This document shows positions 121 to 25,479 of a stretch of DNA of 25,479 nucleotides, one piece after another. Positions within the stretch are counted from its first letter, which is position 1. Every line of letters starts with the position of its first letter. Position numbers and translations under genes: made by a program. The stretch comes from a virus: positions 1 to 25,479 of the IMG/VR virus record IMGVR_UViG_3300043399_000515; one strand, 5' to 3'. Under the pieces are notes generated by a model. That model was not told the DNA's origin. It searched no databases and saw only the letters and a list, made by a program, of their open reading frames with translations.

Positions 121-239
121 CCACTATTACATGGACCGCCGCCGCTCTTGTGTACGGGGCCATCTGCGCTCTCGGTGGCGCATGGTGGGCAAGCAGGGAC
201 CGCATTTGCGAGGACATGGATTGGGAGGCGGGCGAGTGA
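117..239 (+). CDS. Small single-pass membrane protein, unknown function
   Basis: A 40-residue ORF whose ATG (117-119) overlaps the preceding stop as ATGA and whose TGA (237-239) overlaps the GTG of the methyltransferase gene as GTGA. Residues about 3-25 are hydrophobic (TWTAAALVYGAICALGGAWW) and form one probable transmembrane helix, followed by a short charged tail rich in Asp and Glu. It is too short to be assigned to a family. The perfect fit between two overlapping neighbours is the main evidence that it is translated. Confidence 0.55.
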   Translation: MTTITWTAAALVYGAICALGGAWWASRDRICEDMDWEAGE

Positions 240-988
240 ACAAGCTTCACACGCTAGATCTGTTCGCAGGGATAGGCGGCTTCTCGCTCGGCCTCGAACG
301 CGCTGGCTTGAGCGAAACTGTCGCCTTCTGCGAGCTCGACAAGGAAGCGCAAAAAACCCTTTGCAACCGCTACCCAGGCATCCCGATTTATGACGATGTT
401 CGAGAACTTACCGCAGACAGATTGCGATCAGACGGCATACGACCGGATGCAATCGTTGGAGGATTTCCCTGCCAAGATGTTAGTCTTGCAGGCCGTGGAG
501 AGGGTCTTGCAGGCGCACGCAGCGGGCTTTGGCGAGAGTACGCCAGACTGGTTGACGAGTTACGACCCAAGCTCGTCGGTGTGGAGAACGTCGCAGCATT
601 GCTTGGGCGGGGGCTTGGAACCGTTCTCGGAGACTTGGCCGCGCTCGGGTATGATGCTGAATGGCACTGCATACCGGCTTCCTACGCTGGTGCCAGACAA
701 CTTCGGGACCGAGTGTGGATTGTGGCCTACCCCCAACGCGACAGCGTTCAAGGGCGGCAGACAGTCACCGCGGCGTGGTGTCAATCGACCAGAGCGCAAC
801 AATTGGCAAGACTGGTGCAGCCTTGTTCTTGGCCAACGGTATCCGGTTCCAGAGACCGCGGAACAGGTCATGGGGTTCCCCGAGGGATACACCGCAATAA
901 GCAACTCGGGAACGCCGTAGTTCCGCAAGTTCCAGAACTGATCGGCAACGCCATCCTAGACGCAATTGGCTGGAGGCAAGCAGCATGA
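236..988 (+). CDS. dcm: C5-cytosine DNA methyltransferase (Dcm-like)
   Basis: A 250-residue SAM-dependent enzyme that would methylate C5 of cytosine in phage DNA, typically as protection against host restriction. I start it at GTG 236, preceded by GGAGGCGGGCGA and overlapping the upstream stop, because motif I (DLFAGIGGFSLGLERAG) lies right after it. Visible motifs in order are motif I, motif IV with the catalytic Cys (GGFPCQDVS), motif VI (ENVAAL), motif VIII (QLRDR) and motif X (QLGNAVVPQVPELIG). The target-recognition segment between VIII and X is only about 60 residues, short for the family. Most of the gene is overlapped by a second plausible gene in another frame (390-920). The stop overlaps the next gene as ATGA. 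Confidence 0.9.
   Translation: MNKLHTLDLFAGIGGFSLGLERAGLSETVAFCELDKEAQKTLCNRYPGIPIYDDVRELTADRLRSDGIRPDAIVGGFPCQDVSLAGRGEGLAGARSGLWREYARLVDELRPKLVGVENVAALLGRGLGTVLGDLAALGYDAEWHCIPASYAGARQLRDRVWIVAYPQRDSVQGRQTVTAAWCQSTRAQQLARLVQPCSWPTVSGSRDRGTGHGVPRGIHRNKQLGNAVVPQVPELIGNAILDAIGWRQAA
390..920 (+). CDS. Gene nested in the methyltransferase gene; phage 'WPTP/MGFP' methyltransferase-associated protein
   Basis: A 176-residue ORF lying wholly inside the methyltransferase gene, one frame over. Its product reads like a real phage family that I recall from methyltransferase loci, not like a random shadow. It has DFPAKML, then SSVWRTSQHCL, ETWPRSGMMLNGTAYRLPTL, GLWPTPNATAFKGG, and at the C-terminus EQVMGFPEGYTAI followed by NSGTP. 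The 'MGFP-x-G-[WY]-T' element resembles the segment just before motif X in C5 methyltransferases, so a role in target recognition or as a partner of the enzyme is possible (inference). The start is uncertain: ATG at 390, 396 or 450, none with a strong ribosome-binding site. The nucleotides for MGFPEGYTAI also encode HGVPRGIHRN in the methyltransferase frame. Confidence 0.6.
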   Translation: MTMFENLPQTDCDQTAYDRMQSLEDFPAKMLVLQAVERVLQAHAAGFGESTPDWLTSYDPSSSVWRTSQHCLGGGLEPFSETWPRSGMMLNGTAYRLPTLVPDNFGTECGLWPTPNATAFKGGRQSPRRGVNRPERNNWQDWCSLVLGQRYPVPETAEQVMGFPEGYTAISNSGTP

Positions 989-7259: not shown

Positions 7260-7495
7260 TGGTCTTTTCCTTTCGTCAGTTCAGTGAGAATGTCGGTTTT
7301 CTGCGCGCTGCCTTCGGACGTTCCGAAGTAGTAGGCGAAGGCCATAGCGGGCCATGACAGGACATTGCCGAGTGCCATGAACAGCACCTTTTCGCTTTCG
7401 GCGGGGACGGCAAAGACATAGAGCGCGGCCACAATGCCGGACGCAACGAGGACGGCGAGGACGGCGAGGGAGAAGCGTTGCATCGAGCGGTTCAT
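7256..7495 (-). CDS. Holin-like two-TM protein
   Basis: A 79-residue protein from ATG 7495, overlapping the endolysin stop as ATGA. Two hydrophobic helices are visible, around residues 9-30 (LAVLAVLVASGIVAALYVFA) and 39-58 (FMALGNVLSWPAMAFAYYFG). They are followed by a polar tail (TSEGSAQKTDILTELTKGKD). Size, topology and position right after the endolysin gene fit a class II holin. The 'YYFG(S/T)S-x-GS-x-x-K' motif is common in small phage membrane proteins of this region. Function inferred from context. Confidence 0.6.
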   Translation of the reverse strand: MNRSMQRFSLAVLAVLVASGIVAALYVFAVPAESEKVLFMALGNVLSWPAMAFAYYFGTSEGSAQKTDILTELTKGKDQ

Positions 7496-7968
7496 GCTTG
7501 CCCCCTGTAAAGTTTCGCTTCCGCTTCGCGGCGACGGGTCAAGCCCCTCAGCGCCCGTAGACGACCGTTCACGCGCGCCTTGTCCCATCGCACGAATTGC
7601 TCGGCAGCACCGGCATAGTCGCCCTCATTGTGCATGCGCAGCAGGGTTGACCGGCGCAGCGCATCAGCCCCGAGATTGTAGGCGAATGACACCAGCGCAT
7701 CGAACCGATGCTGCCCGCCATGATCGCCCGCCAAGCGCGTAACGTCCTGCTCAAACACCCGCATGTCGTTTATCAGCCGGTCCTCGCATTGCTGGCGCGT
7801 CCAGACGAGACCAGGCTTAATGTCAGGCCCGGTGGTTCCGTATCCAATCGTCCACGGATCGCCGCCGCTCGCTGGATCAGGATAGGCTTCAATCTTCCCA
7901 TCCCGGCGAAGCCTCGCCAAGCCCTCAAAGTGCTTGATGAGTTCGATGCCGTCTCTGCTTGTTTGCAT
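7492..7968 (-). CDS. Endolysin, GH24 lysozyme (T4/P22-like muramidase)
   Basis: A 158-residue cytoplasmic muramidase that cleaves the glycan backbone of peptidoglycan. I choose the second of two adjacent ATGs (7968), which has GGAGG five bases upstream; the first (7971) would be too close. The catalytic triad is visible: Glu in IKHFEGLARL, Asp in AYPDPASGG and Thr in TIGYGTTGPD. Later helices include FDALVSFAYNLGADALRRST, typical of the family, and the C-terminus GLTRRREAEAKLYRG is a usual GH24 ending. There is no signal peptide or SAR segment, so it needs a holin for release. Length is normal for a single-domain phage enzyme. Confidence 0.9.
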   Translation of the reverse strand: MQTSRDGIELIKHFEGLARLRRDGKIEAYPDPASGGDPWTIGYGTTGPDIKPGLVWTRQQCEDRLINDMRVFEQDVTRLAGDHGGQHRFDALVSFAYNLGADALRRSTLLRMHNEGDYAGAAEQFVRWDKARVNGRLRALRGLTRRREAEAKLYRGQA

Positions 7969-8201
7969 CATGCCCTCCGCTCCATCATCCTGCCGATCAG
8001 CACAACATCGCGCCCGCAATCCTCTGGCGATGTACCGGCGCGGAGCCGTACAAGCACACGCTCTAATGCCTCTATGGTGGCCTCTACATGGTCGGAGCGT
8101 TCCTTCCCGCTCGAGACGTTTCCAGGAGCCATGCCCCATTTGCGCCGCGCCTCTTCCCGCTCGGGAATGTCGCCAAGCCAGAAAAAATGTCGTTCGCTCA
8201 T
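7968..8201 (-). CDS. Small phage protein, unknown function
   Basis: A 77-residue protein from ATG 8201 to TGA 7970-7968, between the phosphoesterase and endolysin genes with overlaps on both sides. It begins MSERHFFWLGDIPEREEARR and carries a helix HVEATIEALERVLVRLRAG. No membrane segment and no known domain. The overlaps and strand support it as a real gene. Confidence 0.5.
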   Translation of the reverse strand: MSERHFFWLGDIPEREEARRKWGMAPGNVSSGKERSDHVEATIEALERVLVRLRAGTSPEDCGRDVVLIGRMMERRA

Positions 8202-9349
8202 TAAGCCTCCAGCATCTCGGGGCAGACGGTGCTTGAGCCGACTTCCCCGAACGATTTGTGATAAGTCAGAGCGGACATCCGCCGCTCACTCCACCACCCG
8301 CCACGCGCCGCATAAGCATCGCGTGCAGCCAAGGTTGGGTGCTGGATCACTTCTGCGCCGGGATGCTCTTTCACTTCCCGATGGTGACGGTGGCCGGTGT
8401 GGATGGCGACCTTGTGGCATTGCCCCCACATTTCCCGGAACTGTGCCGCGAACAAGGCTGGCAACTGCCCATTTGCCTTCATATGGCCGTGGTGGAAGCC
8501 AAGCATCACGTTGCCCCAGCGTATCGCGTAGTAGGGCAATTCGCTGTCATGGACGGTAACGCGCGGCTCGTTTTCATAAAGCGCGGCGAACAGCTTACGC
8601 AGCCATAGACTGGAGGCTATATCGTGGTTTCCCTCGCATATCAGCAGGATGACTTGCTCATGCTTGGCAAGCGCCGTGGCGACCAGTTGGCGAATGAGCC
8701 GGATCGCAACGTCAACCACCTTACCAAACCGGGAATCCGCATCAAGCACATGGCCGTGCGTCGGAGTGACCGCCTGCAAACCGTCCCAATGCAGAAAATC
8801 GCCTTGCACGTTGACGATGGCGCTATGAGCGGGAGGGGAGCCATCGACCAGAGCCTGCATCGCCTTGACGCCGATCTGTTCTGCGATGGCGGTATCCCAA
8901 TCGGCCCCACCTTCCTTGTGCCAGCAGAGCGCGCCGACATGGTAATCTGTAAAGGTATATAACGTCAGGAGGCTATCTGTAGTGACATATGGGGCCTTAA
9001 CCGGAGATGCAGGTGATATGTCACCCGCCATTGCCTCCACAGCCTCCCTGAGAGCCGCAAGGGCACGCTCCTTATCAGGAGACTGCCTTTCCCATGTCCG
9101 CTCTACAGCGCCGTCAGGACCGCGCTGGACGGTAACCTTGCCTATAGTGAAGCCGGGAGCTACGCCGCTGTCAAAATGGCCCGGTGCATGGCCTTGCGAT
9201 GCCCGCCACTCCCTTGCCCGGTCCAGTCTGGAACGAAACGTCCCCTCCGGTATGCCCAGCGCCCTTGCTGCCGTGGCAATGCCGCCGTGTTCAACAAAGG
9301 CGTCTAGCGCCTCTGCCATTTTCTCAGGTGAGAGCGGTGGCGTAGGAAT
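8201..9349 (-). CDS. HTH domain fused to a calcineurin-like metallophosphoesterase
   Basis: A 382-residue protein with an N-terminal HTH (EHGGIATAARALGIPEGTFR) and a C-terminal phosphoesterase domain carrying the full metal-site set in order: TDYHVG (D-x-H), QGDFLHWDG, CEGNHD, FHHGHM and HTGHRHH. It probably hydrolyses phosphodiesters or phosphomonoesters using two metal ions; the substrate is unknown. The first ATG is at 9319, but I start the gene at an ATT (9349-9347). That codon has AGGAGG exactly five bases upstream, lies just after the preceding stop, and adds PTPPLSPEK, which reads as part of the domain. With ATG 9319 there is no ribosome-binding site. The family call is firm and the start moderately so. 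Confidence 0.8.
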   Translation of the reverse strand: MPTPPLSPEKMAEALDAFVEHGGIATAARALGIPEGTFRSRLDRAREWRASQGHAPGHFDSGVAPGFTIGKVTVQRGPDGAVERTWERQSPDKERALAALREAVEAMAGDISPASPVKAPYVTTDSLLTLYTFTDYHVGALCWHKEGGADWDTAIAEQIGVKAMQALVDGSPPAHSAIVNVQGDFLHWDGLQAVTPTHGHVLDADSRFGKVVDVAIRLIRQLVATALAKHEQVILLICEGNHDIASSLWLRKLFAALYENEPRVTVHDSELPYYAIRWGNVMLGFHHGHMKANGQLPALFAAQFREMWGQCHKVAIHTGHRHHREVKEHPGAEVIQHPTLAARDAYAARGGWWSERRMSALTYHKSFGEVGSSTVCPEMLEA

Positions 9350-20141: not shown

Positions 20142-21559
20142 CGCGCGCCGCCCGGCTCAAAGTCATAATCGAGCGCCTGTACATAATTCCACTCGGTTGC
20201 AGCCGCCACGCGAAGGCTGGTCGAGATATAACGCCCGGTAGTGCGCAGCGGCATGATGCCCGAAGCCTGTAGCGTCGAACCTGCCGTCAGGCTGTTAGTG
20301 TCTCCAAGCCGCGCCTTGGCATCGACAGAGAGCGACATGCCGGAAACCGCGTCCGTAATCGGGCGAACAGAGCGCATCCGCGTCACCCGTCCCGGCGTGA
20401 ACTGGTTAAAGCCCAAGTCCATCCGCGCGGCCAGTTTGTCGCCGGTCAGCGTGCCGATCTTGTGCGCAGAACTGACGCAATAGAGCCGGGGATTGCCCCC
20501 ACTCCACCGGGGGTCATCCAGCGTGTAAGGCATGGTGTCCAGATTGGTATAGGTCACCGCCAAATCATCCAACCCGATGGACGTGGTAAAGCCCGGCATG
20601 ATGCCCGTTATGGGCAGGGACATGGTGGACCAGCGGTCTAGCTCGAAATTGTAAATCCACACCGTGCCGGGAGCGCCTGGAACACACCAGAACACCAGCT
20701 TGTTCTGCGGGTCAACCGCCGTATAAAGCCCGGTAAAGTCATCGCGCGCGACCGCCTCGATAAAGGTGCGATCAACCTTTTCAGAGCCAATCGGCTTCAG
20801 CACCTGCCCGTCATCCAGTGCCATGAAGCCCCGGTCGGACAGAAAGAAAATCGTGCGCCCTGCCTGCGCCACCGAGGACCCTGAAGCGCATCCGAAATTG
20901 CTGGATACCTCGTCAAACTGGAATGGCGCGTCGGAATCGCCAGTACGCGTCATCCGCATGATGCGCTCGCGCTGGAGAACAATGCCGTACTCACCCCCGG
21001 CGATGGCCATCACCGAGCCGCCCGACTGCATTGGCAGAGAACCAGCCTGATTAACGCCGTCCGTCCAGCCCGTGTAATCCCGAAAGGCGGACCACTGGAC
21101 CAGCGAAATATCGCCGCCCGCCTGCCCGATTACGAGATAATCGCCGACCACCGCAATGGTAGCCCCAGTCGGAGCCGTCGCCAGCGCATTGGCCGTGCCG
21201 CCCGCCAGATCGACCGCGCGCGTGGTGGATCCGTTCACGGTAATGACGTAATCGCCAAACTGTGCAAACTTCCAGCGGTTGCCGATAGTCAGGCCGTTAA
21301 CCAACGTGGTCCATGACCCATCGGATTCCAGTTGATACAACCCCGCAGCGGTGCCAGCCAAAAGGTAGGCCGTGCCATCCGTTGCGATGGCGCTATACCC
21401 ACCCAGGAAGGCAGCCCCGAGCGCGTCACTGATCTCGTACAGGCTGCCGATGGAGCGATAGCCGTCCTGTGCCGGGAAGACGTTTTCCGCCCTCAGAAGC
21501 ACGCCGCTATTATTGGACTGGTCCGGCAGATAGGCCGGAAGCGTAACCCGTTCTATCAT
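20138..21559 (-). CDS. P22 gp10-like packaged-DNA stabilisation / tail hub protein
   Basis: A 473-residue protein from ATG 21559. The opening RVTLPAYLPDQSNNSGVLLR followed by AENVFPAQDGYRSI is the signature start of the phage stabilisation-protein family related to P22 gp10. The body contains propeller-like strands (YVITVNGSTTRAVDL, DYLVIGQAGGDISLVQWSAF). It would close the portal after packaging and attach the tail. It is followed at once by the tail fibre gene and preceded by the adaptor gene, the order expected for such a tail machine. It is of similar length to P22 gp10 (472 residues). Confidence 0.75.
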   Translation of the reverse strand: MIERVTLPAYLPDQSNNSGVLLRAENVFPAQDGYRSIGSLYEISDALGAAFLGGYSAIATDGTAYLLAGTAAGLYQLESDGSWTTLVNGLTIGNRWKFAQFGDYVITVNGSTTRAVDLAGGTANALATAPTGATIAVVGDYLVIGQAGGDISLVQWSAFRDYTGWTDGVNQAGSLPMQSGGSVMAIAGGEYGIVLQRERIMRMTRTGDSDAPFQFDEVSSNFGCASGSSVAQAGRTIFFLSDRGFMALDDGQVLKPIGSEKVDRTFIEAVARDDFTGLYTAVDPQNKLVFWCVPGAPGTVWIYNFELDRWSTMSLPITGIMPGFTTSIGLDDLAVTYTNLDTMPYTLDDPRWSGGNPRLYCVSSAHKIGTLTGDKLAARMDLGFNQFTPGRVTRMRSVRPITDAVSGMSLSVDAKARLGDTNSLTAGSTLQASGIMPLRTTGRYISTSLRVAAATEWNYVQALDYDFEPGGAR

Positions 21560-22248
21560 ACCATGTCCGCAAGATCGGTGCGCAATTGCCTGCGAACCGG
21601 AGGCGTAGGATAGGCCGTCAAAACCTGCTGCAAGCGGCTATCGAACAGGTCGAACCACTGCGCAGCCGTTTCCTTGTCGGGAAGGAACGTGTTCGCGTGG
21701 AACATCATTCCGTAAAGGTAAATATCCGAATGGTGCGCAAGGAACCAGTTGGACTGGTTAGCCGACGACAGGGCCGGAAGCCTCGCATAATAGAGCAGGC
21801 TTCCGGCGTAACTCACATCAGGGACGGGATAGACCCGCATTTCGCCGTCGATCACCGCACCGACTTCTGGTTCCCCGGTGTAGTCAACCGTAGTGGAGAA
21901 CAGCCATTCGTTAGGGACCGGATTGGCCGCATCATCGACCAGGCCCACGTGATCGACAAAGCGCAAGGACTTGCGCTCATCATAGGTGTTTTCAAAGTCG
22001 AGTGTCTGGACCTTCATTAGGTCGTCAGGCAGATCGACATATTCCGCATCGAGCGCGATGGTCTGCCGCGTCAGTTGCGGGCGAACCGGGCGCAGGGCAA
22101 GGCGGCGATTGATCTCGGATTCGACCAGCCCAACCCAGCCCCCGAGCTGCGTCGTGTCAACCTGCCCATCCAGATAGTCGGAAATGGCCGCAACCAGCGT
22201 GTCATAGCTATCATAGCCCGCTGAAGGGACTTGTATCGCAATAGCCAT
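21556..22248 (-). CDS. Head-to-tail adaptor (gp4/gp11-like)
   Basis: A 230-residue protein from ATG 22248, right after the previous stop (TAAATG). GWVGLVESEINRRLALRPVR, YVDLPDDLMKVQTLDF and FLAHHSDIYLYGMMFHANTF are features I know from the adaptor family of podophages, in which 'E-x-x-i-x-R-x-l', 'lP-x-D' and 'yl..a.l.ea..fl' form the conserved helices. It should bind the portal ring after DNA packaging and accept the gp10-like protein. Overlap with the gp10-like gene is four bases. Confidence 0.75.
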   Translation of the reverse strand: MAIAIQVPSAGYDSYDTLVAAISDYLDGQVDTTQLGGWVGLVESEINRRLALRPVRPQLTRQTIALDAEYVDLPDDLMKVQTLDFENTYDERKSLRFVDHVGLVDDAANPVPNEWLFSTTVDYTGEPEVGAVIDGEMRVYPVPDVSYAGSLLYYARLPALSSANQSNWFLAHHSDIYLYGMMFHANTFLPDKETAAQWFDLFDSRLQQVLTAYPTPPVRRQLRTDLADMV

Positions 22249-22911
22249 TTAACGCCCCCGCAACCAGTCGCCCAAATGGCCTTCAAATGTCTTGAATCCG
22301 ACATGCCCCAACTTGGCCTCGGGATTGACCCAAACCTTGCCGCCCATGTCGGTCCAGCGGCGGCAAAAGGCGTAATCCTCGCCCATCTTGTGCTTACCGA
22401 TGCGGTAATCCGCGAACAGCGCCCAAGCCCTCTGATCCGGGGCCGTTTCGACGTAGAATTCGCTGTCAGGGTATTGCGCGACCATCGCTTCCAATTGCCT
22501 GCGGCTCAATTTCATGAACCCGGCAGGCACACCCGCCACCTCAAGCAAGCCCGTCTCCGGGTCAGCCTGCAATTCCGGCCTGTCGAGCCATTTGACGCTA
22601 TAAGCGATAGGGTCCCGGCGCTGCGGATAGATGCAGGCCACCATGTCAACCGGAGAATCCACCAGCCTCAGGAGCGCGCCCGCTTCCCAGCAGACATCAC
22701 TATCAATGAAGACCAGTGTATCGCATTCGCTGGCAAGGAACTTGGCAACAATCAGCGCCCGCGCATCGGCAATCAGCGCGTTGCCGCACTCATCCATCAG
22801 CGTCCAGTCATCACCCCGCGCCTGAAGCGCCAGAAGGTCGGTGAACAGGGAGCGCATGGTGCCAAGATGAATTGTCCCGCTATAGGCGGGGATGGCGACC
22901 ATCACTTTCAT
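22249..22911 (-). CDS. GT-A fold glycosyltransferase (GT2-like)
   Basis: A 220-residue enzyme candidate. I use ATG 22911, which overlaps the upstream stop and has GAGGT before it, rather than the GTG six bases earlier. It begins MKVMVAIPAYSGTIHLGT, the first strand of a GT-A domain, and has CDTLVFIDSDVCWEAGAL with the metal-binding DSD motif. VDMVACIYPQRRDPIAYSVK, GVPAGFMKLSRRQLEAM and a C-terminal GEDYAFCRRW (E-D near the end as general base region) complete the domain. The sugar and acceptor are unknown. It lies between head and tail genes next to a methyltransferase, suggesting virion-protein or envelope modification. Confidence 0.8.
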   Translation of the reverse strand: MKVMVAIPAYSGTIHLGTMRSLFTDLLALQARGDDWTLMDECGNALIADARALIVAKFLASECDTLVFIDSDVCWEAGALLRLVDSPVDMVACIYPQRRDPIAYSVKWLDRPELQADPETGLLEVAGVPAGFMKLSRRQLEAMVAQYPDSEFYVETAPDQRAWALFADYRIGKHKMGEDYAFCRRWTDMGGKVWVNPEAKLGHVGFKTFEGHLGDWLRGR

Positions 22912-23429
22912 GCACACCTCGAAGGCTTGACCGCCTGCAAGGCAAATTCCAGCACGTCGCCGGTTTCGCGCAGGTGGATGATGTCAAAATCAGCCCGGTA
23001 GCAAAAGCGGAAGTCCGACATCGCGGTCTTGCCGACTTGCGCATAGGAAGGCTGATGGAGGAAGGTGAAGCTTTCCTTGGGGATCACCCGCGTATGTGAT
23101 GGGTCGCCCCATGCCCACACAGATCCGGGAAGCGGAACCGTGCCGAACAGGATGCCCGCAGGCTTCAGCAGCCGCCAGAAGTCGCTAAACTGCCCGAAGA
23201 AGAACCTGTAATCGCCTTGCGTGCCGACATGCTCAAGACACTCATAGCAATGTATTTCGTCAAATGCCTCATCCGCGAAGGGGAGAGGAAAGACCGCCAT
23301 GTCGTGCACCACATCGGGCTTGTGATCGGCGTTGTAATCCAGAGTGGTCAGGGAGGACCATTCAGCCCTCCCATCCCTATGCAGCTTCTTGACGCGGCTA
23401 GAACCGCAGCCAAGTAGAAGCTCACTCAA
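22908..23429 (-). CDS. Class I SAM-dependent methyltransferase (Methyltransf_11-like)
   Basis: A 173-residue protein starting at TTG 23429, whose start overlaps the upstream stop (TTGA). The N-terminus SELLLGCGSSRVKKL is motif I of a class I methyltransferase. TTLDYNADHKPDVVHDM supplies the acidic residue that binds the SAM ribose. FDEIHCYECLEHV is motif IV, and LLKPAGILFGTVPLP follows as strand 5. This type methylates small molecules, sugars or proteins rather than DNA. The next gene is a glycosyltransferase, overlapping by four bases, so both probably act on the same substrate (inference). Confidence 0.8.
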   Translation of the reverse strand: MSELLLGCGSSRVKKLHRDGRAEWSSLTTLDYNADHKPDVVHDMAVFPLPFADEAFDEIHCYECLEHVGTQGDYRFFFGQFSDFWRLLKPAGILFGTVPLPGSVWAWGDPSHTRVIPKESFTFLHQPSYAQVGKTAMSDFRFCYRADFDIIHLRETGDVLEFALQAVKPSRCA

Positions 23430-23632
23430 GCAATAATCCCCACCGTCTGAAGGCGGGAGATGATCGAATTAACCGCCGTGGCAATATCCGTTGCCGTGGG
23501 GGTGGTGGCCAGCGTGGTCACAGCCGCGCCCTGCACAACCGGGGTTTTGCCGTAAAAGCCCACCTTGTCAGTAGACGAACGGCCAACGTTCACACCGTCA
23601 TCATTGCCGGTGCCGACATATTCAACAGCCAT
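23426..23632 (-). CDS. Small head decoration / head-fibre-like protein
   Basis: A 68-residue protein from ATG 23632, with GGAAGG eight bases upstream. The motif SSTDKVGFYGKTPVVQ is shared, as I remember, by small proteins encoded next to coat genes in many phages ('…d-k-i-g-FyG-x-tPv-x-Q'). A short Thr/Ala-rich linker and a C-terminal helix (ATAVNSIISRLQTVGII), probably trimerising, follow. It lies directly downstream of the coat gene but behind a terminator, so it should be made in smaller amounts. Confidence 0.6.
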   Translation of the reverse strand: MAVEYVGTGNDDGVNVGRSSTDKVGFYGKTPVVQGAAVTTLATTPTATDIATAVNSIISRLQTVGIIA

Positions 23633-23677: not shown

Positions 23678-24868
23678 TCAGTTGAAGTGGAGGCGCGTGG
23701 CCCACTGCGGACGGAGCGTCTTGTAGCCATAGAGGACGTCGATTCGACACGGCAGGTTGTCGTTGTTGATGTCATACTGGCGCACGATGCGCAGGCTGAT
23801 ACCGTCCACGACTTCACGCTTGCCGAAGTCCACGCCACCCGGCATCACAAGGTCAGCCGTCACGAAGGTGAAGGCGTCCTTGTGGTACAGAAGCGAAGTG
23901 GTATCCGCACCCGAGGCCGTACCAGCGACCACAACGGACTTGCTCGCGCCCGCCGAAGCAATGCTGATATTCTGCTTTGCGCCCGAGGTAATCGGGGTAG
24001 GCGAAACAGACACGTTGCCCGCGCCGCCCGCATAGGCGGCAGTCACCACGAACTGCTGCAATACGCCGGTGCTCACCTTGGTTTCGGGGTGAACCGAAGT
24101 CACGCCCACGATGGTGAACACGTCGCCCAGCGCCAGAGTGCCAGTGCCGCCCGTAACCGCGATAGTAGCGGTGCCGGAGGTGATGCCCGTCGAGGTGTTG
24201 ACGACATAGGAGCCATCTTCCGAGCCGCAGGTGTGACCCGGCCACATGGTGTTTTCCATGAAGTCGAAGCCCGCCGCGCGGCCCATGTAGCCTTCCTTGT
24301 ATGCCTTGGAAAGCTGCGCCTGGTCGTTGAACAGGGTCTTGGTGTCCTGGATCAGATCCGCCATGTCCTGCGAGTTCAGGTTGGCCGTGCGGTCATTCAG
24401 CGGGGCGAGGCCGTTCTGCATCTTGACACGAGCATCCAGCACATCATTGTAAGCGATGGCCGAACCCGGCGTCCAAACCGAATTGTAAACGTCCTTGTAC
24501 ATCGACATGGCGTCATATTCGATGTTGGCCGCAAGCACCGTCATGGCAGGCTCAAGGATGCGCTTCGAGAAGTCATCCAGCGACATGGTAAGTTCAGCAG
24601 ACGAAAAGTTCACGTCCACACCCTTCTGGGTGGCGACAGTGAGGGTCTGGCTCTCTTCCGCCGTGTCCTGCACATCGATGGTCTTGCCGGTGCGAACCGT
24701 GTACTGGTTCGGTTCACGGATCTTCAGCGTGGTGCCGATCTTTGCGCCGGACTTGGCGAAACTGTCATCATACTGACGGTTGATCGAGCCGACAAAGTTC
24801 AGCTTCTGGTGGAGGATACGAAGGGCCTCGCGGGTCACCTTGGTATCGGTAAGGATGGTCTGCGTCAT
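23678..24868 (-). CDS. Major capsid protein, P22 gp5-like coat
   Basis: A 396-residue protein from ATG 24868. The N-terminal region (REALRILHQKLNFVGSINRQ, then YDDSFAKSGAKIGTTLKIRE) is characteristic of the P22 coat family within the HK97-fold capsids. An insertion-type domain is visible at residues about 220-320 (TLALGDVFTIVGVTSVHPET, GVLQQFVVTAAYAGGAG). The C-terminus (GISLRIVRQYDINNDNLPCR, then IDVLYGYKTLRPQWATRL) closes the fold. Length is close to P22 gp5 (430 residues). The scaffolding gene directly upstream and a terminator downstream fit high-level expression. Confidence 0.9.
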   Translation of the reverse strand: MTQTILTDTKVTREALRILHQKLNFVGSINRQYDDSFAKSGAKIGTTLKIREPNQYTVRTGKTIDVQDTAEESQTLTVATQKGVDVNFSSAELTMSLDDFSKRILEPAMTVLAANIEYDAMSMYKDVYNSVWTPGSAIAYNDVLDARVKMQNGLAPLNDRTANLNSQDMADLIQDTKTLFNDQAQLSKAYKEGYMGRAAGFDFMENTMWPGHTCGSEDGSYVVNTSTGITSGTATIAVTGGTGTLALGDVFTIVGVTSVHPETKVSTGVLQQFVVTAAYAGGAGNVSVSPTPITSGAKQNISIASAGASKSVVVAGTASGADTTSLLYHKDAFTFVTADLVMPGGVDFGKREVVDGISLRIVRQYDINNDNLPCRIDVLYGYKTLRPQWATRLHFN

Positions 24869-24907: not shown

Positions 24908-25479
24908 TTATCGCTTGTTGACCTGTGCGTTGCGCTGCTTGATCCACTCATCAGCCGAAAGACGGTCATCCAGTCCCCGCTTGGGAACGGAGCCGCCCTT
25001 GACCTTTGCAGCGGGCTTTGCCTGCACTTGGGCCGGTTGCTTGGGTTTGGCGTTCATCGCGACGTAGGCCGTGTGCATCAACTTCACGAATTTCGGGTCT
25101 GTGACGCTTTCGAGATACGCACGCGGGAAACCAAACTGCTTTTCCCCGAACTCCATCAGAGTGATCGCCTTTTGAGCGCTCCAATCAGGAATATCGCGTT
25201 CCAGTTCGGCAATGCCTTGCTGTAGGCGCTCGGCGGTCACCCGCTGCGCTTCAGCCTCACGCCTTTGGACGGCTCCTGTTAGTTCGGTGTCGAGATTTGC
25301 ACGCTGCTGTTGCAGCAAGGTGTAATTGCGGAAATGGCTCTGTGCGGCCTGGAAGTCCTGTGCCTCCAGTTGATTCCAGTCCACATTCGCATATTGCGAA
25401 AGGGCCGCATCAACCGCGACCATTGCGGCCCGCGTGTTCAGTTCGTCATCACTGGCCTGCTTGACCTCGGTAATGGCGC
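24908..25479 (-). CDS. Scaffolding protein (C-terminal part, cut by window edge)
   Basis: The last 190 residues or so of a leftward gene that is open to the right edge of the window; the true start lies outside. The visible part is polar and helical, with a probable coiled coil (RREAEAQRVTAERLQQGIAE). It then has PDWSAQKAITLMEFGEKQFG and a basic C-terminus (LSADEWIKQRNAQVNKR). A charged, helical gene ending in a basic segment immediately before a P22-type coat gene is the expected scaffold, whose C-terminal helices bind coat subunits. No catalytic motif is seen. Confidence 0.75.
   Translation of the reverse strand, partial: AITEVKQASDDELNTRAAMVAVDAALSQYANVDWNQLEAQDFQAAQSHFRNYTLLQQQRANLDTELTGAVQRREAEAQRVTAERLQQGIAELERDIPDWSAQKAITLMEFGEKQFGFPRAYLESVTDPKFVKLMHTAYVAMNAKPKQPAQVQAKPAAKVKGGSVPKRGLDDRLSADEWIKQRNAQVNKR

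What the first reader, a model, noticed from the sequence alone, without database searches (positions are those of the whole stretch)
22249..23429. Glycosyltransferase and methyltransferase pair embedded in the head module
Two enzymes of the types that build and cap glycans sit, overlapping by four bases, between the decoration-like gene and the head-to-tail adaptor. Neither is needed for assembly. They may glycosylate and methylate the decoration protein, coat or fibre, or change the host surface late in infection.
Basis: inference. Interest (0 to 1): 0.55.

Follow-up and report, generated by a model that had tools for sequence, protein, structure and literature searches.

The report
Capsid fibre tip with matched glycosyltransferase
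A phage head gene cluster carries a small capsid-fibre-like protein followed by a methyltransferase and a glycosyltransferase, and across many related phages the fibre tip and the glycosyltransferase change together, which suggests that these phages sugar-coat their own head fibres.

Summary
A class I methyltransferase (22908-23429, -) and a GT-A-fold glycosyltransferase (22249-22911, -) overlap by ATGA. They lie between a 68-aa gene after the P22-type coat gene and an SU10-type adaptor. The 68-aa gene also overlaps the methyltransferase gene by four bases (TTGA).

The small protein ("FYG", motif GFYGxTP) looks like a capsid head fibre: its family profile weakly matches the C-termini of the phi29 and crAss001 head fibres.

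The glycosyltransferase goes with the FYG tip, not with the coat. In 95 coat-gene-selected loci it occurs beside 10 of 23 FYG proteins, beside 0 of 60 proteins with the same N-terminal peptide but another C-terminal domain, and in 0 of 12 others. In 66 loci the FYG N-terminus co-varies with the coat (r 0.84) and the FYG tail with the glycosyltransferase (r 0.87); the adaptor beyond follows the coat. One narrower clade shows the link only weakly. Methyltransferases of other kinds, including one fused to the glycosyltransferase, recur in the cassette.

Best reading: the enzyme glycosylates the exposed fibre tip and the methyltransferase finishes the glycan. Modification itself is untested. The swappable tip-plus-enzyme cassette appears to be a new variant of known virion glycosylation.

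The parts
23678..24868 (-). major capsid (P22-type coat) protein; the N-terminal part of FYG co-varies with it
   Evidence: Pfam PF11651 3.7e-33; PHROG 283 6.3e-72
23426..23632 (-). FYG protein, 68 aa, head-fibre-like capsid protein; proposed glycan acceptor
   Evidence: ORF; follows the coat gene in relatives; family profile A4 hits phi29 head fibre 3qc7 E 0.0023, 6qvk 0.0075 and crAss001 head fibre 7qof 0.035
23561..23632 (-). FYG N-terminal part (residues 1-24), proposed capsid-docking peptide
   Evidence: co-varies with coat, partial r 0.78, n=66
23429..23539 (-). FYG tail/tip (residues 32-68)
   Evidence: co-varies with GT, partial r 0.82, n=66; AF2 pLDDT 80-86 with helix 47-64
23486..23506 (-). 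TTPTATD motif (residues 43-49), Thr-rich loop before the tip helix; candidate O-glycosylation stretch (inference)
   Evidence: invariant in alignment A1; TPTATD in 19 of 20 unique tails of MT+GT loci, 1 of 66 GT-only, 0 of 48 without GT; 22 synonymous DNA versions of TTPTATDIA
22908..23429 (-). class I SAM-dependent methyltransferase, 173 aa, TTG start overlapping the FYG stop (TTGA)
   Evidence: Pfam Methyltransf_11; conserved LLxGCG motif; junction
22249..22911 (-). GT-A-fold glycosyltransferase, 220 aa, ATG start overlapping the MT stop (ATGA)
   Evidence: AF2 model; STIV A197 Z 17.1, LH3 16.2, Mnn9 14.3; D70, D72, E178, D179, H203 invariant in A2
21556..22248 (-). head-to-tail adaptor, outside the cassette
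   Evidence: Pfam PF24175 SU10_adaptor 1.2e-25; in the larger adaptor family, adaptors co-vary with coat, not GT

Best explanation
The three overlapping genes FYG-MT-GT form a head-fibre glycosylation cassette. FYG docks on the P22-type capsid by its N-terminal peptide and displays a short C-terminal tip. The soluble GT-A enzyme transfers a sugar from a nucleotide-sugar donor to the tip, most likely to Thr residues of the TTPTAT loop in this lineage. The MTase then O-methylates the transferred sugar (or, less likely, the tip itself). Phages swap tip and GT together while keeping the docking peptide, coat and adaptor. SHOWN by computation: gene order, folds and motifs, purifying selection, association of GT with the FYG tip, co-variation, natural swaps. 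INFERRED: location on the virion, that the tip is the acceptor, residue and sugar, the methylation step, and the benefit (altered adsorption or shielding).
For: Coat-selected sample, chosen without regard to FYG or GT (95 loci with enough flank): GT beside FYG 10 of 23; beside proteins with the same N-terminal peptides but other C-terminal domains 0 of 60; neither 0 of 12; Fisher 1.1e-7 for 10/23 against 0/72. Co-variation in 66 loci: tail-GT r 0.87, partial 0.82, permutation p 0.002; head-coat r 0.84, partial 0.78; head-GT partial -0.08; tail-coat partial -0.14; the same without the MxNPG clade (n=39, tail-GT 0.84). Adaptor beyond the GT (n=22) follows coat (partial 0.91), not GT (0.21). Two-copy genomes (17 unique pairs): tails alike within a genome (0.73) although heads are not (0.07); between tail classes heads A-A 0.67 and B-B 0.59, tails 0.15 and 0.16. 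Natural swaps: of 289 pairs with similar coat and head, all 16 with different GT have different tails, and of 273 with similar GT only 1 has a clearly different tail; L391 has the window's coat and head but another tail and GT. MTases recur: a second Methyltransf_11 group between FYG and GT and a C-terminal MTase-like domain fused to GT (L391 Methyltransf_24 E 2.2e-4). GT structure is closest to STIV A197, from a virus with a glycosylated coat protein (passages of PMC10551542). crAss001 gp21 docks by residues 1-38 and its C-terminal domain resembles the phi29 head-fibre end (passages of PMC10172136).
Against: No biochemical or mass-spectrometric data. Tail and GT are neighbours, so part of the co-variation could come from joint recombination at the conserved GFYG motif. 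In the clade with a C8 neighbour (n=19) tail-GT partial correlation is only 0.25 and the downstream gene also follows GT (0.55). At coat clusters of 80% identity the FYG-GT association is not significant (17 clusters, p 0.10). Two of 17 two-copy genomes (L245, L255) have unlike tails. 13 of 23 FYG loci in the coat-selected sample have no GT, so the enzyme is dispensable. Ser/Thr enrichment of tails beside GT is small (0.238 against 0.206, Mann-Whitney p 7e-5, sequences not independent). The PDB head-fibre matches of the FYG profile are marginal and a fold search with the FYG model found nothing. Relatives of this MT mostly occur without GT or FYG (57 of 80).
Confidence: 0.66

Rival explanations
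1. Linkage only: tail and GT are exchanged together because recombination falls in the conserved GFYG motif and at the GT-adaptor boundary; the GT's substrate is another virion protein (coat, tail fibre).
For: Tail and GT are contiguous; GFYG holds the few invariant columns of the FYG family alignment. In one clade the downstream gene also follows GT.
Against: GT is absent next to the same docking peptides with other tips (0 of 60). In two-copy genomes the tail of copy A matches although the unexchanged head of copy B lies between. Coat co-variation with GT is low once tail and head are controlled (0.21).
Confidence: 0.17
2. Host-surface modification: the pair changes LPS or another surface polysaccharide of the host late in infection or in lysogeny.
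For: Methyltransf_11 and GT genes are typical of glycan gene clusters (general knowledge, no call).
Against: Embedded and overlapping in the late head operon. No membrane segment in GT or MT (highest 19-residue hydropathy 1.39 and 1.07) and no flippase among the window genes that gave family matches (not all genes gave matches or were scanned). GT tracks the FYG tip.
Confidence: 0.08
3. DNA hypermodification: the GT glycosylates phage DNA bases.
For: Viral GTs that modify DNA exist (cited in PMC12619734, passages). The window has a C5 DNA methylase at its end (131-988).
Against: No base-hydroxylating or nucleotide-synthesis gene among the window genes searched. The window is a 25.5-kb virus record with no completeness estimate, so absence is weak evidence. 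GT tracks a structural protein.
Confidence: 0.04
4. Accessory cargo: the genes confer no virion trait and sit in a permissive intergenic site.
For: Many relatives lack them with otherwise the same order.
Against: Strong purifying selection, overlapping starts, dependence on FYG tip type.
Confidence: 0.05

Closest known systems
Mycobacteriophage virion glycosylation (Che8, Corndog, Myrna; Freeman et al. 2023, seen only as cited in passages of PMC12363180, PMC11256854, PMC12691614 and PMC12619734)
   Same: Phage-encoded GTs modify the phage's own virion proteins, reported at the C-termini of capsid and tail-tube subunits
   Different: There the acceptors are coat and tail tube, and one announcement places a relative's GTs near the genome's 3' end (PMC11256854); here the GT is in the head operon, coupled to a separate fibre-like protein, with an MTase
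STIV A197 glycosyltransferase (PDB 2c0n)
   Same: Best structural match of the window GT (Z 17.1, rmsd 2.6, 163 aligned, 24% identity); minimal GT-A enzyme of a virus whose coat protein is glycosylated
   Different: Archaeal, unrelated virion; acceptor thought to be the coat protein, unproven
Head fibres gp8.5 of phi29 and gp21 of crAss001
   Same: FYG family profile matches their C-termini (E 0.0023 and 0.035); N-terminal docking and C-terminal display
   Different: FYG is much shorter than gp8.5 and linked to a GT; the matches are marginal; virion location not shown
Collagen hydroxylysine glycosyltransferases LH3 and COLGALT1
   Same: High-scoring structural neighbours (Z 16.2 and 13.7), enzymes that act on a protein side chain
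   Different: Fold similarity only, no function implied

Membership tests
GT-A fold glycosyltransferase | GT-A nucleotide-sugar-binding fold | tested here: met
   AF2 model pLDDT 87; 998 of 998 aligned chains Z>=5, best STIV A197 Z 17.1
GT-A fold glycosyltransferase | DxD metal-binding motif | tested here: met
   FIDSD; D70 and D72 invariant in A2 and in 66 of 66 FYG-linked GTs (numbered D72 and D74 there)
GT-A fold glycosyltransferase | sugar transfer activity, donor and acceptor | not testable with these tools
   -
Class I SAM methyltransferase (Methyltransf_11) | Pfam model above curated cut-off; glycine-rich motif I | tested here: met
   25.6 bits against 21.2; G7 C8 G9 invariant in A3
phi29/crAss001-type head fibre | homologous C-terminal fibre domain | tested here: inconclusive
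   profile E 0.0023 / 0.0075 / 0.035; fold search of a pLDDT 68 model without hit
phi29/crAss001-type head fibre | N-terminal part docks on the capsid | tested here: inconclusive
   indirect: FYG head co-varies with coat, partial 0.78
phi29/crAss001-type head fibre | oligomeric, present on the virion surface | not testable with these tools
   -
Phage virion self-glycosylation system | phage-encoded GT | tested here: met
   (fold and motif; activity not tested)
Phage virion self-glycosylation system | glycan covalently on a virion protein | not testable with these tools
   -
Serotype-conversion (gtr) cluster | membrane-bound glucosyltransferase (recalled) | tested here: not met
   no hydrophobic segment in GT, highest 19-residue mean 1.39
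Serotype-conversion (gtr) cluster | flippase partner gene (recalled) | tested here: inconclusive
   none among the window genes scanned, but not all genes were scanned and the record may be a fragment

The most novel reading that the evidence does not exclude
Phages with P22-type coats carry exchangeable fibre-tip modules: a capsid-docking peptide joined to one of several tips, each GFYG tip moving with its own private glycosyltransferase and often a methyltransferase recruited at least three times (two separate gene groups, one fusion), so that a phage changes its surface glycan by swapping one small cassette.
Probability: 0.5. Interest if true: 0.75.

Novelty: new variant of a known kind. 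Interest (0 to 1): 0.62.

Why it matters
Phages are usually thought not to be glycosylated; the known exceptions cited in the papers seen here are mycobacteriophages. If these small cassettes do glycosylate head fibres, virion glycosylation is widespread in uncultivated environmental phages and can be predicted from sequence, with an enzyme and a short acceptor that can be paired, swapped and tested in a tube. It would also suggest a function for PHROG 1574 (unknown function) and for a large group of small unannotated head proteins.

Tried and rejected
Serotype-conversion-type membrane GT: no membrane segment. Prophage hosts: a scan of genome contigs with the GT alignment gave 85 pattern matches but no relative, so the host is unknown. 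Known phage records: the MT and FYG of the window had no match among 50,697 records. The GT had distant ones, among which two named circular genomes, MW202573.1 and MW202691.1, show the FYG-(MT)-GT order. Cultured phage PAE2, close in coat, has no FYG in the gene after the coat. DSL-LC05 has the B-type docking peptide with another domain and no GT there. Simple Ser/Thr enrichment as evidence for O-glycosylation was weak and is not relied on. The TPTATD motif first looked tied to the MT. The exception L105 keeps the MT but has another GT and another tail, and the single GT-only case appears to be L090, which does have the MT, so the motif follows the GT clade. An independent adaptor-selected sample had almost no FYG (2 of 32 usable new loci; GT in 0 of 32) and so could not test the association; only its new loci were counted. 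Fold search of the FYG model gave nothing. Paper searches for a head-fibre or decoration-protein glycosyltransferase found no paper on it (PMC open-licence library only).

Full report
WHAT IS THERE. On the - strand the order is scaffold (24908-25423), P22-type coat (23678-24868), a 68-aa gene (23426-23632), methyltransferase MT (22908-23429), glycosyltransferase GT (22249-22911) and adaptor (21556-22248). The three middle genes overlap by four bases each (TTGA, ATGA) and the adaptor start abuts the GT stop. MT passes the Pfam Methyltransf_11 cut-off. GT passes no Pfam cut-off and belongs to PHROG 1574, unknown function. Its AF2 model (pLDDT 87) aligns best with STIV A197 (Z 17.1, rmsd 2.6 over 163 residues, 24% identity), then LH3 (16.2) and Mnn9 (14.3) (Foldseek list).

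THE SMALL PROTEIN. I call it FYG after its motif GFYGxTP. A profile of 43 relatives (A4) finds in the PDB the phi29 head fibre (3qc7, E 0.0023; 6qvk, 0.0075) and the crAss001 head fibre entry 7qof (0.035). These are marginal scores but they are the top three hits. In crAss001, residues 1-38 of gp21 sit in a capsid pocket and residues 42-97 resemble the phi29 gp8.5 end (passages of PMC10172136); in phi29 the N-terminal 110 residues form the base on the capsid (passages of PMC6542822). The window FYG model is poor overall (pLDDT 68) but its tail is better (80-86), with a loop TTPTAT followed by a helix.

CONTEXT OF RELATIVES. Of 80 GT-selected viral loci, 11 (all with 75% or more GT identity) have FYG and MT next to GT; the other 69 (26-31% identity) have neither. 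Of 80 MT-selected loci, 15 have GT and FYG, 7 GT without an FYG detected, 1 FYG only and 57 neither. So the trio is stable among close relatives, but both enzyme families are also used elsewhere. A DNA pattern for GFYGxTPV, blind to the rest of the protein, gave 120 stretches. In 116 an FYG ORF was found; 60 have a GT of this family within 2 kb downstream, 45 none, 8 too little flank, 3 GT elsewhere. Counting from that listing, ORFs of 125 aa or less have it in 59 of 86 usable loci and longer ones in 1 of 22.

GT FOLLOWS THE TIP. A coat-gene pattern, blind to FYG and GT, gave 95 loci with 1.2 kb or more downstream. Counting only FYG proteins of 130 aa or less, the table was 9 with both, 10 FYG only, 1 GT only, 75 neither (Fisher 7e-7; at 95% coat clusters 2e-7; at 80%, 17 clusters, p 0.10). 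The one GT-only locus, L350, has a 354-aa GFYG protein directly before the GT. With that included, GT occurs in 10 of 23 FYG loci, 0 of 60 loci where the same N-terminal peptides carry another C-terminal domain, and 0 of 12 others (p 1.1e-7). An adaptor-selected set added 32 new usable loci with no GT and only 2 FYG, too few to test.

CO-VARIATION. In 66 unique loci with coat, FYG and GT, FYG was split at GFYG. Head-coat distances correlate 0.84 and tail-GT 0.87. Partial values: tail-GT 0.82 (p 0.002), head-coat 0.78, head-GT -0.08, tail-coat -0.14, coat-GT 0.21. Without the MxNPG-headed clade (n=39): tail-GT 0.84. A first version with the whole FYG gave FYG-GT given coat 0.74. The adaptor after GT (n=22) follows coat (0.91), not GT (0.21), while tail-GT stays 0.83; in a narrower clade with another downstream gene (n=19) tail-GT is only 0.25 and downstream-GT is 0.55. 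Genomes with two FYG copies (17 unique pairs) keep two unlike docking peptides but like tails (within genome tails 0.73, heads 0.07; between tail classes heads 0.67 and 0.59, tails 0.15 and 0.16); L245 and L255 are exceptions. Of 289 pairs with similar coat and head, 16 have different GTs and all 16 have different tails; of 273 with similar GTs, 222 have similar tails, 50 intermediate, 1 different. L391 is the window's natural swap: coat distance 0.22 and head 0.10, but tail 0.85 and GT 0.85.

METHYLTRANSFERASE. Besides the window's MT, a different Methyltransf_11 group (c11) lies between FYG and GT in other lineages, and some GTs carry a C-terminal domain with weak methyltransferase matches, all below the curated cut-offs: L391 Methyltransf_24 2.2e-4; L265 Methyltransf_4 0.003; L287 PCMT 0.017. 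Repeated recruitment suggests that methylation belongs to the same pathway; the substrate is inferred.

MOTIF. TPTATD is in 19 of 20 unique tails of MT+GT loci, 1 of 66 GT-only and 0 of 48 without GT. The pattern scan used TTPTATD, but GT and MT scans found such loci independently. 22 distinct DNA versions encode TTPTATDIA, so the protein sequence is under selection. FYG tail dN/dS is 0.069 (24 of 28 pairs usable), MT 0.096 and GT 0.054 (6 of 28 each).

KNOWN AND NEW. Self-glycosylation of virions is known in mycobacteriophages (cited in passages; original not read) and proposed for STIV. Head fibres are known. GenBank genomes MW202573.1 and MW202691.1 already contain FYG-(MT)-GT, annotated as hypothetical protein, methyltransferase domain, 'A197 proteiN-transferasE' and 'polysaccharide biosynthesis'. 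I found no paper that links a head-fibre or decoration protein to a dedicated GT. I rate it a new variant of a known kind.

Noticed in passing
window 131-988 (+): C-5 cytosine DNA methylase (Pfam 2.2e-42) at the window's left end, on the strand opposite to the structural genes.
   Followed up: no
window 7492-8139 (-) and 8201-9319 (-): Phage lysozyme (5.5e-36) and a DNA repair exonuclease family protein (PHROG 704, 3.6e-113).
   Followed up: no
L343-L454 (coat-selected loci): The same short docking peptides (GVAYxD, YQxGDGN, MxNPGP) occur at the start of many proteins with other C-terminal domains, in 60 of 95 loci: a general capsid-docking tag with exchangeable domains.
   Followed up: partly
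L013-L081: Distant GT relatives (26-31%) in marine phages lie next to a second glycosyltransferase-like gene (c3, judged by eye) and small conserved genes, without FYG.
   Followed up: no
L101, L103, L112, L116-L136: Many relatives of the window's MT (55-60%) lie in an early-type region beside RusA-like and HNH-like genes (judged by eye), without GT; role there unknown.
   Followed up: no
L338:181-870 (+): FYG followed by an MptE-like protein (PF01973, E 2.2e-5, below cut-off) instead of the GT; L277 has yet another GT-like gene (PHROG 14945, 0.0016).
   Followed up: partly
L273:4087-6381 (+): Fusion of two GT2 domains with the FYG-linked GT in one 764-aa protein (Pfam PF00535, 1.1e-45, two stretches).
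   Followed up: no
L455:4158-4739 (MW202691.1): An annotated endonuclease sits between coat and FYG, a possible mobility gene for the cassette; similar genes (by eye) in L152 and L158.
   Followed up: no
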